Positions 30,734 through 34,702 of a stretch of 64,000 nt of DNA are shown in pieces. The stretch lies in assembly GCF_006704125.1 (NCBI RefSeq), contig NZ_VIGH01000005.1, forward strand, positions 62,001 to 126,000, given 5' to 3'. Position 1 is the stretch's first letter. Each line of letters starts with the position of its first letter. The notes below the pieces were generated by a model. It did no database searches and was not told the origin of the DNA. It saw only the letters and a program-made list of their open reading frames with translations. The DNA is from Rhodococcus spelaei (GTDB taxonomy: Bacteria; Actinomycetota; Actinomycetes; Mycobacteriales; Mycobacteriaceae). Both the position numbers and the translations under genes were made by a program.

Positions 30734-30740
30734 CTGTATG

Positions 30741-30781
30741 TCAACGTCCCTTGACGCCCGCCCGTCGTCAATCTACGTTGA
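30741..30781. promoter_or_regulatory. Double TCAA-N6-TTGA operator over the HTH/Clp-N promoter
   Basis: Two copies of TCAA-N6-TTGA, at 30741-30754 and 30768-30781, have centres 27 bp apart. TTGACG at 30751-30756 (-35) and TACGTT at 30774-30779 (-10) are 17 bp apart and lie in the two operators. The -10 ends 6 nt before the ATG at 30786, so the transcript would begin at the start codon. The arrangement suggests repression by the encoded HTH protein. Confidence 0.65.
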
Positions 30782-30785
30782 CATC

Positions 30786-31001
30786 ATGACCGAAGCGACG
30801 AATCTTGCGGCAGCCGCAGGTAGTCCCGACCCCTCGGTCGGACTGCGGGCCGTACTCGCGCTCCGCAGGCTGCTCGAGAGGCTCGAGGCCATTCAGGTCC
30901 GCAGTGCCCGCGACCAGGGTTGGTCCTGGCAGGCCATTGCGGACGCGCTCGAGGTGAGTCGGCAGGCAGTCCACCAGAAACACAACCGGAGAGGGCGGTA
31001 G
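30786..31001 (+). CDS. Small helix-turn-helix protein of the Clp-N module
   Basis: A 71-residue protein that is little more than one HTH: a helical N-terminal part (ALRRLLERLEAIQVRSARDQ) then WSWQAIADALEVSRQAVHQKHN. Its small size, the following Clp-N gene and the double operator mark it as a likely autoregulator. The ATG at 30786 has a -10 at 6 nt and was chosen over upstream starts in the DUF8020-like gene. The next gene starts 5 nt later. Confidence 0.8.
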   Translation: MTEATNLAAAAGSPDPSVGLRAVLALRRLLERLEAIQVRSARDQGWSWQAIADALEVSRQAVHQKHNRRGR

Positions 31002-31006
31002 TCGCG

Positions 31007-31585
31007 ATGTTCGAACGGTTCACCACCGAGGCACGCGCGACCGTCGTCGTCGCGCAAGACGAGGCGAGAGCACTGCGGGCGCCGCGAATCGGACCGGAGC
31101 ACCTGTTGCTCGGCGTGCTCGTCGCCGCGCACGCCACCGAGCTGGGCGCGCTCCTCGACGAAGCGGGTCTGACCGCCGAGGCGGTCCGGGCCCGACTGAC
31201 GGAACTGCGCGGCGGTCAGGCACTCGGGGCCGAGGACGCGGAGGCGCTCCGGTCCATCGGCATCGACCTCGACGCGGTGCGCGAGAGCCTCGAGGCGAGC
31301 TTCGGGGAGGACGCGCTCGACCGCCCCGACCTCGGCGCCGACGAGCGGCGCGGGTGGCTCGGTCGCAGGATCGGGCACACTCCGTTCGCGCCGGAGGCCA
31401 AGAAGGTGATCGAGCTGGGCCTGCGGGAAGCGCTGGCGCGCAAGGACACCGGAATCTCGGCCGAGCACTTGGTGCTCGGCCTCGTTCGCGGTGGTGACGG
31501 CGTGGCGTGCGGTCTGATCGAGGAGCATCTGACGACCGCGGAGCTGCGTCGCCGGGTCGTCGCCCTGCTGGACCGGGCTGCCTGA
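31007..31585 (+). CDS. Clp-N domain protein, two repeats, no ATPase
   Basis: A 192-residue protein with two Clp-N (R) repeats, FERFTTEARATVVVAQDEARAL at the start (key part FERFTTEAR) and FAPEAKKVIELGLREAL in the second half near residue 130. In ClpC and ClpA this domain binds adaptors and substrates in front of the AAA+ ring; here no ATPase follows. It might bind substrates or compete with ClpC1 as an adaptor or decoy. GGAGAGGG upstream of the ATG is a good ribosome site. It is cotranscribed with the small HTH gene. Confidence 0.85.
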   Translation: MFERFTTEARATVVVAQDEARALRAPRIGPEHLLLGVLVAAHATELGALLDEAGLTAEAVRARLTELRGGQALGAEDAEALRSIGIDLDAVRESLEASFGEDALDRPDLGADERRGWLGRRIGHTPFAPEAKKVIELGLREALARKDTGISAEHLVLGLVRGGDGVACGLIEEHLTTAELRRRVVALLDRAA

Positions 31586-33387: not shown

Positions 33388-33426
33388 TGCGGCGCGTCGT
33401 CGCAGCCGATGTGCCAGCATGCACCC

Positions 33427-33810
33427 ATGAGCTTTCTGGTACGTCTGGTGATCAACGCGATCGCGATCTGGCTGGCCGCCGCCTGGGTGAACGGCATCGA
33501 GATCGCCAGTTCCGACAAGGGCACCGGCTACGACATCCTGGTTGTCCTGTTCATCGCGCTGGTGTTCACCGTGGTGAACGCCTTCATCAAGCCGTTCGTG
33601 CAGCTGTTGTCGCTGCCGCTGCTGATCCTCACCCTCGGGCTGTTCACGCTGGTGATCAACGCGCTGATGCTGCTGCTGACCTCGTGGATCACGGACTCGA
33701 CCGAATTCGGCATCTCGGTCGACGGCTTCTGGACCGCGGTCTGGGGCGCGCTGATCATCTCGCTGGTGAACTTCGTGCTCAGCGCAGTGGTGCCGTCCTC
33801 GAAGAACTGA
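33427..33810 (+). CDS. Phage-holin-like membrane protein (PF04020 type)
   Basis: A 127-residue protein with four close helices (about 5-23, 35-60, 62-85, 95-120), like the YvlD/mycobacterial phage-holin superfamily IV. The name reflects fold similarity only; there is no phage context. The ATG at 33427 starts the first helix. Its stop is 22 nt from the convergent menA stop. Confidence 0.75.
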   Translation: MSFLVRLVINAIAIWLAAAWVNGIEIASSDKGTGYDILVVLFIALVFTVVNAFIKPFVQLLSLPLLILTLGLFTLVINALMLLLTSWITDSTEFGISVDGFWTAVWGALIISLVNFVLSAVVPSSKN

Positions 33811-33832
33811 CCCACCCGGGAAGCGGGTCGGC

Positions 33833-34702
33833 TCAGCCCAGTCCGAGGCCGAGCCCGGTCGCGACGCCCCACACCAGCATGGCGGCACCGGTGCCGGCGA
33901 GCGCAGGAATCAGGGCCAGTCCCTTCCCGCCGGACCGCACCGGCGCATTGGCCTTGACCGCCAACGGAACTGCCACCAGTCCGGCCAGCGCCCACGGCGT
34001 GCGGGCGACAAGGATCAGTGTCACCACGAACGGCGCCACCAGCAGGACCAGGTGCAGGGTCCGGGTGCCCGCGTCGCCGAGCCGCACCGCCAGGGTGTTC
34101 TTGCCGGACTCGGCGTCCGTCGGGATGTCCCGCAGGTTGTTCGCGACGAGGACCGCGCTCGAGAAGGAACCGACGGCGATCGCGGCGACCACGCCCACCC
34201 AGTCCACCCGCTCGGCCTGCACGAACTGGGTGCCGCACACCGCGACCAGCCCGAAGAACACGAACACCGCGACCTCACCGAAACCGCTGTAGCCGTAAGG
34301 GTTCCTGCCGCCGGTGTAGTACCAGGCGCCCGCGATGCACACCGCGCCGACGAGGATCAGCCACCACGCAGAGGTGAGCGCGAGCACCACCCCGACCACC
34401 GCGGCCAGACCGAAGCAGGTGAACGCGGCGGTCTTGACCGCGGCCGGCGAGGCCAGCTTCGATCCGACCAGGCGCAGCGGGCCGACCCGCTCGTCGTCGG
34501 TACCGCGGATACCGTCCGAGTAGTCGTTGGCGAAGTTCACCCCGATGATCAACGACATCGAGACGACCAGTGCGAGTACTGCCTTCCACCACACCGCGCC
34601 GCCGATCGAGGCGGCCGCGCCGGTACCGACCAGCACGGGGGCGATCGCGTTCGGCAGGGTGCGCGGACGGGCACCCTCGATCCATTCGGAGACAGAAGCC
34701 AT
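33833..34702 (-). CDS. menA: 1,4-dihydroxy-2-naphthoate polyprenyltransferase MenA
   Basis: A 289-residue UbiA-family membrane enzyme that attaches the polyprenyl tail in menaquinone synthesis. The two Mg-binding aspartate motifs are NFANDYSDG near residue 56 and NNLRDIPTD near residue 188. About eight helices are seen. Length and motifs match MenA. It is divergent from the large regulator at 34762, sharing a 59-nt spacer; menE is 7 kb away. Confidence 0.95.

What the first reader, a model, noticed from the sequence alone, without database searches (positions are those of the whole stretch)
30741..31585. HTH plus Clp-N module with two operators exactly over -35 and -10
A 71-residue HTH protein and a 192-residue ClpA/ClpC-type N-domain protein lacking an ATPase form a two-gene unit. 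TCAA-N6-TTGA occurs twice with centres 27 bp apart; one copy contains the -35 (TTGACG) and the other the -10 (TACGTT), with a 17-bp spacer and transcription expected at the ATG. The sequence shows tight autorepression. The inferred role is a regulated supply of a ClpC1 substrate-binding decoy or adaptor. I do not know a characterised system of this form.
Basis: partly seen in the sequence, partly recalled or inferred. Interest (0 to 1): 0.7.

Follow-up and report, generated by a model that had tools for sequence, protein, structure and literature searches.

The report
Split ClpC2-like autorepressed sponge operon
A two-gene unit found in many actinobacteria pairs a tiny DNA-binding protein with a spare copy of the substrate-docking domain of the ClpC protease; it looks like a two-protein version of the known antibiotic-sponge repressor ClpC2, with its own, slightly shorter, on/off DNA site.

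Summary
Two 16-bp palindromes GTCAA-N6-TTGAC cover a -35 and a -10 just before a 71-aa HTH gene; a 192-aa Clp_N gene starts 5 nt later. They are the only exact copies in the 4.8-Mb genome. Of 80 named loci chosen by HTH similarity, 78 keep both sites, always with spacer 6, and 80 have Clp_N next.

'No characterised system' is wrong. ClpC2 (HTH and Clp_N fused) is a published autorepressor and cyclomarin sponge with two palindromes over -35/-10 (PMC10030653). The pair also fits M. smegmatis MSMEG_3760-MSMEG_3761; 3761 is called ClpC3, and the palindromes were seen in 2017 without a function.

What I did not find in print: repressor and sponge as separate proteins; spacer 6 at ClpC3-type sites (157 of 157) against 7 at ClpC2 sites (53 of 53); and a natural split showing that the half-site goes with the HTH, whose recognition helix is missing from the ClpC2 crystal fragment. 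DNA binding in ClpC2 then probably lies there, not in the Clp_N helix proposed. Autorepression and ligand release are inferred, not measured.

The parts
30740..30755 (+). Operator O1, GTCAACGTCCCTTGAC; contains the -35
   Evidence: exact palindrome arms, spacer 6; both sites kept in 78 of 80 named loci
30751..30756 (+). -35 hexamer TTGACG
   Evidence: in 78 of 78 two-site loci the element is TTGACA or TTGACG
30767..30782 (+). Operator O2, GTCAATCTACGTTGAC; contains the -10
   Evidence: exact palindrome arms, spacer 6
30774..30779 (+). -10 hexamer TACGTT
   Evidence: TAnnnT at this offset in 73 of 78 two-site loci
30786..31001 (+). HTH gene, 71 aa, proposed autorepressor (counterpart of MSMEG_3760)
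   Evidence: Pfam HTH_23; profile match to the ClpC2 N-terminal domain, probability 96.7
30954..30986 (+). Proposed recognition helix (residues 57-67, VSRQAVHQKHN)
   Evidence: Q60, H63 and K65 in 80 of 80 loci; aligned with ClpC2 VSKQAAQKRF; the helix itself is inferred, no structure was made
31007..31585 (+). Clp_N protein, 192 aa, no ATPase (counterpart of ClpC3 / MSMEG_3761)
   Evidence: Pfam Clp_N 64 bits; best PDB matches are ClpC1 N-domains; residues that align with ClpC1 F2, F80 and E89 are F, F and E

Best explanation
This is the rhodococcal form of the MSMEG_3760-ClpC3 pair and works as a two-protein version of ClpC2. The small HTH protein dimerises and sits on two palindromes that cover the -35 and -10 of its own leaderless promoter, keeping the operon off. 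The Clp_N protein (ClpC3) keeps the ligand groove of the ClpC1 N-domain without the motor, so that in quantity it soaks up ligands or unfolded clients that would otherwise load onto ClpC1. When such ligands rise, repression is lifted and ClpC3 is made in excess. Shown here by comparison: the pair, the operators, their promoter overlap, their conservation, and the homology of the HTH to ClpC2's own N-terminal domain. Inferred: that the HTH protein binds these sites, that it represses, that ClpC3 binds ligands, and that ClpC3 passes the signal to the HTH protein by direct contact, as expected from the fused ClpC2.
For: Two exact operators in 78 of 80 named loci and a Clp_N match next in 80 of 80 (weakest E 2.9e-12). 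Of 49 loci of the first set, 49 have two TCAA-N6-TTGA sites and 47 a Clp_N match at E 1e-5; 48 of the 49 have two with full GTCAA...TTGAC arms. Of 42 Mycobacterium loci read, 42 have Clp_N next and 35 both sites. Only two exact sites in the whole genome, both here (the reversed control pattern has 3). The promoter coincides with the sites in 73 of 78. HTH to ClpC2 N-domain profile match, probability 96.7, E 3.4e-10. The ClpC2 dimer salt bridge D46-R57 maps to position 31 (E 77, D 3 of 80) and R42 (80 of 80). Groove residues: F2 in 76 of 77, F80 in 73 of 77, E89 in 67 of 77. ClpC2 precedent: autorepression, two sites over -35/-10, leaderless, release by cyclomarin, sponge. MSMEG_3760 has two 16-bp palindromic motifs at -47 and -19, MSMEG_3761 is named clpC3, and reviews say that ClpC3 rises and binds cyclomarin. 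The order mpg - HTH - Clp_N - ABC ATPase is seen in two mycobacterial genomes.
Against: No binding or expression data for any split pair were seen. Perrone 2017 reports MSMEG_3760 and MSMEG_3761 as monocistronic units by RT-PCR, against one operon. In ClpC2 the authors place DNA contact in the Clp_N domain (R185/R189), which a lone HTH protein would not have. Some loci have only one or no exact site: 1 and 1 of 80, 10 and 3 of 40 (4 of these 40 without Clp_N), and in Mycobacterium 5 and 2 of 42, which a recheck makes 6 and 1, since L240 has a site that the first scan cut off. E89 is replaced in 10 of 77 Clp_N proteins, so ligand binding may not be uniform. The consensus promoter scan found nothing. 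No route from ClpC3 to the HTH protein is shown.
Confidence: 0.72

Rival explanations
1. The HTH protein represses, but ClpC3 is only an output: the signal reaches the HTH protein some other way, for example by its own heat lability or by turnover through ClpC1P, with no contact between the two products.
For: The HTH protein stands alone, and its family also governs unrelated neighbours: an HTH relative with two spacer-6 sites precedes a beta-lactamase-family protein (L095). MSMEG_3761 rises 10.9-fold in cold, a stress without a known peptide ligand.
Against: Near-obligate pairing with Clp_N (80 of 80) and the fused ClpC2 suggest that the two parts work together.
Confidence: 0.3
2. The Clp_N protein itself contacts the operator, as proposed for ClpC2, and the HTH protein is only a dimerisation partner.
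For: ClpC2 R185A/R189A binds DNA poorly. The R185 position is R in 75 and K in 2 of 77 ClpC3-type proteins.
Against: The R185 position is also R in ClpC1, which shows little sequence specificity. The R189 position is R in only 13 of 77 and A in the window, while the proposed recognition helix is nearly fixed. The crystallised ClpC2 N-part ends at residue 72, before that helix.
Confidence: 0.08
3. The Clp_N protein is an adaptor that brings substrates or regulators to ClpC1P rather than a sponge.
For: Shares the ClpC1 groove residues.
Against: ClpC2 slows casein degradation and counteracts cyclomarin rather than delivering substrates; no ClpC1-binding motif was sought here.
Confidence: 0.1
4. 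A toxin-antitoxin-like pair, since the HTH resembles the RelI antitoxin.
For: RelI is the top PDB entry of the HTH profile (E 1.1e-4) and its authors derive some RelI homologues from ClpC2.
Against: The partner is a Clp_N domain, not a RelE-like RNase; PADLOC models find nothing at E 0.1; no match in phages or viral contigs and only 4 plasmid records.
Confidence: 0.03

Closest known systems
ClpC2 (Mtb Rv2667 family; Taylor et al. 2023, PMC10030653)
   Same: HTH-type N-part plus Clp_N; two GTCAA/TTGAC palindromes over -35 and -10 at the start codon; the gap between the two sites is 11 or 12 bp in both (13 in one ClpC3-type locus); leaderless; same groove residues in the paper's ClpC2 (the own ClpC2 has Y at the F80 place)
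   Different: one fused protein; spacer 7 between half-sites in 53 of 53 exact sites against 6 in 157 of 157; the Clp_N domain forms a separate, fully supported group
ClpC3 (MSMEG_3761) with MSMEG_3760
   Same: small Clp_N protein; preceding gene with two 16-bp palindromic motifs at -47 and -19 (here -46 and -19); gene order of that locus found with an HTH/Clp_N pair in two mycobacterial genomes
   Different: in the window the pair lies near a Phage_holin_4_2 gene and menA, not between mpg and the ABC genes; the MSMEG sequences themselves were not held
RelI antitoxin (Rv2664, PDB 9SDC)
   Same: HTH core related to the ClpC2 N-part
   Different: partner is an RNase toxin; toxin gene comes first; its authors found no likely inverted repeats
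ClpC1 N-terminal domain
   Same: closest solved relative of the Clp_N protein (about 87 bits), with the same groove residues
   Different: no AAA+ ATPase parts; about 47 extra residues before the second Clp repeat

Membership tests
ClpC2 | HTH-type N-part and Clp_N in one polypeptide | tested here: not met
   two ORFs 5 nt apart; the same genome has a separate fused ClpC2 of 244 aa
ClpC2 | Operator CGTCAAC-n5-GTTGACG | tested here: not met
   same GTCAA half-sites but spacer 6, not 7; own ClpC2 has two spacer-7 sites
ClpC2 | Two operators over -35 and -10, leaderless | tested here: met
   by sequence only
ClpC2 | Clp_N falls in the ClpC2 group | tested here: not met
   30 ClpC2 rows form one group (100/100) without the window protein; the tree is drawn from its midpoint, not rooted
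ClpC2 | Cyclomarin binding and derepression | not testable with these tools
   groove residues present; binding needs the bench
ClpC3 / MSMEG_3760-3761 locus | Clp_N protein without ATPase | tested here: met
ClpC3 / MSMEG_3760-3761 locus | Upstream gene with two 16-bp palindromic motifs near -47 and -19 | tested here: met
   -46 and -19 in the window; paper passages; the letters of its motif (a figure) were not seen
ClpC3 / MSMEG_3760-3761 locus | mpg - HTH - Clp_N - ABC gene order | tested here: not met
   not the window's own neighbourhood; met in L242 and L243, two unnamed mycobacterial genomes (Pfam of the L243 proteins), which is what links the pair to the locus
ClpC3 / MSMEG_3760-3761 locus | Direct sequence orthology to MSMEG_3760 and MSMEG_3761 | not tested
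   no record named M. smegmatis was held; one search looked for it by another chain and found nothing, with a threshold possibly too strict
Toxin-antitoxin (RelS-RelI type) | RelE-like toxin partner | tested here: not met
   partner is Clp_N

The most novel reading that the evidence does not exclude
Actinobacteria keep two insulated stress or antibiotic sponges of the ClpC1 docking domain, and a one-base difference in spacer between identical half-sites (6 for the two-protein ClpC3 pair, 7 for fused ClpC2) keeps their autorepressors from cross-talking. In the ClpC3 pair, ligand sensing and DNA binding are on separate proteins that signal by contact, and the true DNA reader of ClpC2 is its N-terminal HTH, not the Clp_N helix in the current model.
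Probability: 0.45. Interest if true: 0.65.

Novelty: new variant of a known kind. Interest (0 to 1): 0.5.

Why it matters
ClpC1 is a target of cyclomarins, ecumicins, rufomycins and BacPROTACs, and high ClpC2 and/or ClpC3 is offered as a possible reason why some mycobacteria do not respond (passage of PMC10914731). Knowing that ClpC3 has its own dedicated repressor and operator would explain how it is switched on, and the natural split gives a clean way to ask which domain reads DNA and which senses ligand. The spacer rule predicts who represses what in other actinobacterial genomes.

Tried and rejected
Structure prediction of the HTH protein from alignment A3 was asked eight times and always answered 'busy', so no fold or fold search was done; the profile comparison stands in for it.

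Looking for M. smegmatis by the 8b9o chain (396 genomes) found nothing at E 1e-80; this says little, since the threshold may be too near the best score possible. I first took 8b9o for ClpC3, but it matches own ClpC2 far better (168.7 bits) than the window protein (46.1 bits), so I do not use it as ClpC3.

A toxin-antitoxin or phage origin was considered and dropped. Of the 80 Clp_N proteins, 77 could be extracted and 3 (L158, L170, L198) were dropped from the residue counts; the tree used 45 of these 77 plus the window protein. The 42 Mycobacterium loci are the 30 best plus 12 picked, of 67 genomes with a match. The 30 ClpC2 loci are the best 30 of 69 genomes with a match. The loci sets overlap in genomes in part.

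Papers. Hoi et al. 2023 (Cell), the primary ClpC3 paper, is not held; I know it only through reviews and cannot say whether it treats MSMEG_3760. PMC10030653: abstract, Results and Discussion read, supplement not seen. PMC13284704, PMC12913811, PMC5660060, PMC10454040, PMC10864484, PMC10746685, PMC10892018, PMC10914731 and PMC13192320: found passages only. Paper searches, none of which listed a paper that I saw join the HTH gene to ClpC3; none asked for the spacer rule as such.

Full report
What is there. Two exact palindromes GTCAA-N6-TTGAC lie at 30740-30755 and 30767-30782, 27 bp centre to centre. The first carries TTGACG (30751-30756), the second TACGTT (30774-30779), spacer 17; the ATG of a 71-aa HTH gene follows at 30786. 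A 192-aa protein with Clp_N repeats and no ATPase starts 5 nt after the HTH stop. Shuffles never gave two such sites (0 of 100 for the whole window; 0 of 20,000 for the upstream 100 nt). The whole genome (4.8 Mb, 18 contigs) has exactly two exact sites, both here; the reversed control pattern has three, so the count alone is not rare, the placing is. A consensus promoter scan did not see the promoter.

Conservation. The HTH protein is found at E 1e-5 in 128 of 201 genomes of the family and 264 of 397 of the order; these tallies include HTH relatives without Clp_N. Of 49 loci (the window's own among them), 49 have two TCAA-N6-TTGA sites and 47 a Clp_N match downstream at E 1e-5; 48 have two and 1 has one with full arms, all spacer 6. 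Of 40 more distant loci that I picked for spread, 27 have two exact sites, 10 one and 3 none, again all spacer 6, and 36 have Clp_N. Of 80 named loci (Rhodococcus, Nocardia, Mycolicibacterium, Streptomyces, Actinoplanes, Micromonospora, Prauserella and others; the best 80 by HTH similarity) 78 have two exact sites, 1 has one, 1 none near the gene; all 157 sites have spacer 6; distances are 27 (53), 28 (24) and 29 (1); Clp_N follows in 80 of 80, its start overlapping the HTH stop by one base in 58 as extrapolated from the alignment. In Mycobacterium the HTH is patchier, 67 of 396 genomes at E 1e-8; of 42 loci read, 42 have Clp_N and 35 two sites, 5 one and 2 none, corrected to 6 and 1. In the 78 two-site loci the -35 is always TTGAC[AG], and TAnnnT stands at the -10 place in 73.

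Known relatives. ClpC2 of mycobacteria is an HTH-type N-part fused to Clp_N. It represses its own promoter through CGTCAAC-n5-GTTGACG, often doubled over -35 and -10, seems to give a leaderless transcript, is released by cyclomarin A and then acts as a sponge (PMC10030653). The window's genome has its own ClpC2 on another contig with two sites of spacer 7. In M. smegmatis, MSMEG_3761 is called clpC3. Reviews of a paper that is not held say that ClpC3 rises with ClpC2 and binds cyclomarin. A 2017 paper on the next operon saw two 16-bp palindromic motifs at -47 and -19 of MSMEG_3760, showed that the neighbouring TetR does not bind that fragment, and gave them no role in the passages I saw (PMC5660060). 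Two mycobacterial genomes read here have mpg, then HTH, Clp_N and an ABC ATPase in that order, with the spacer-6 sites between mpg and HTH (L242, L243; the L243 mpg, tyrS and ABC proteins named by Pfam). I therefore take the window pair as the MSMEG_3760-ClpC3 pair; I did not have the MSMEG sequences themselves, nor the motif's letters.

Two points that I did not find in print (searches, none of which asked for them by name). The gap between the two sites is 11 or 12 bp in both, 13 in one ClpC3-type locus. Second, the HTH protein aligns with ClpC2 residues 41-84 (hhalign probability 96.7, E 3.4e-10), including VSRQAVHQKH / VSKQAAQKRF. The crystallised ClpC2 N-part (8ada) ends at residue 72, just before that stretch, and the main text of the ClpC2 paper does not mention an HTH (0 hits), while a 2026 paper on RelI does speak of an HTH region in ClpC2, so this point is partly in print. 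The salt bridge of the ClpC2 dimer (D46-R57) falls on E31 and R42, which are E/D and R in 80 of 80 loci. The Clp_N arginine R189 proposed for DNA contact is R in only 13 of 77 ClpC3-type proteins, though R185 is R or K in all 77. The shared half-site thus travels with the HTH.

How it most likely works. An HTH dimer on each palindrome shuts the promoter. ClpC3 keeps the ClpC1 groove (F2 76, F80 73, E89 67 of 77) and would take up ligands or unfolded clients. In ClpC2 the ligand acts within one protein; here the message must pass between two proteins, and how is not known. Against a simple operon stands the 2017 RT-PCR report of separate transcripts.

Evolution. In a tree of 79 Clp_N domains the 30 ClpC2 rows are one group (100/100) that joins ClpC1 (97/89); the ClpC3-type rows lie outside it and are not clearly one clade (midpoint root, ClpB on a long branch). 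So the split pair is not simply a recently broken ClpC2. The HTH is also seen with other partners: a beta-lactamase-family protein behind two spacer-6 sites (L095) and, in the literature, RelS and DUF3887 or DUF2812 fusions.

Verdict. The system is a variant of a known kind, with a testable operator code and a testable correction to the ClpC2 model. No structure model could be made (server busy).

Noticed in passing
L095 (unnamed family member), about 432-1700: An HTH relative with two spacer-6 palindromes is followed, overlapping, by a beta-lactamase-family serine hydrolase instead of Clp_N, so the HTH-operator part may be a reusable autoregulation module.
   Followed up: partly
G000 C3:45368-45384 and C12:461111-461127: Two further exact spacer-7 palindromes (the ClpC2 type) elsewhere in the genome; possible extra ClpC2 targets.
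   Followed up: no
L038, L065, L080: Natural exceptions: HTH with two sites but only a 38-residue Clp_N match (L038), no Clp_N match (L065), or an HTH frame that departs before its end (L080).
   Followed up: partly
window 31007-31585, residues about 75-120: The Clp_N protein carries about 47 more residues than ClpC1 before the second Clp repeat, with a stretch (AEALRSIGIDLDAVRESL) that resembles part of a Clp_N repeat; Pfam reports three Clp_N stretches.
   Followed up: no
window 33409-34702: A Phage_holin_4_2 gene and a menA-like UbiA-family gene lie downstream; a menA-like protein also lies near the pair in several Mycobacterium loci, and a similar holin-like protein follows the HTH in L038.
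   Followed up: partly
L218, L228, L232, L240, L244, L245, L248: Some mycobacterial pairs keep only one TCAA-N6-TTGA site, or none (L228), upstream of the start.
   Followed up: partly
L177, 1626-1671: The one named locus without sites at its HTH gene has a pair of such palindromes about 1.3 kb upstream instead.
   Followed up: no
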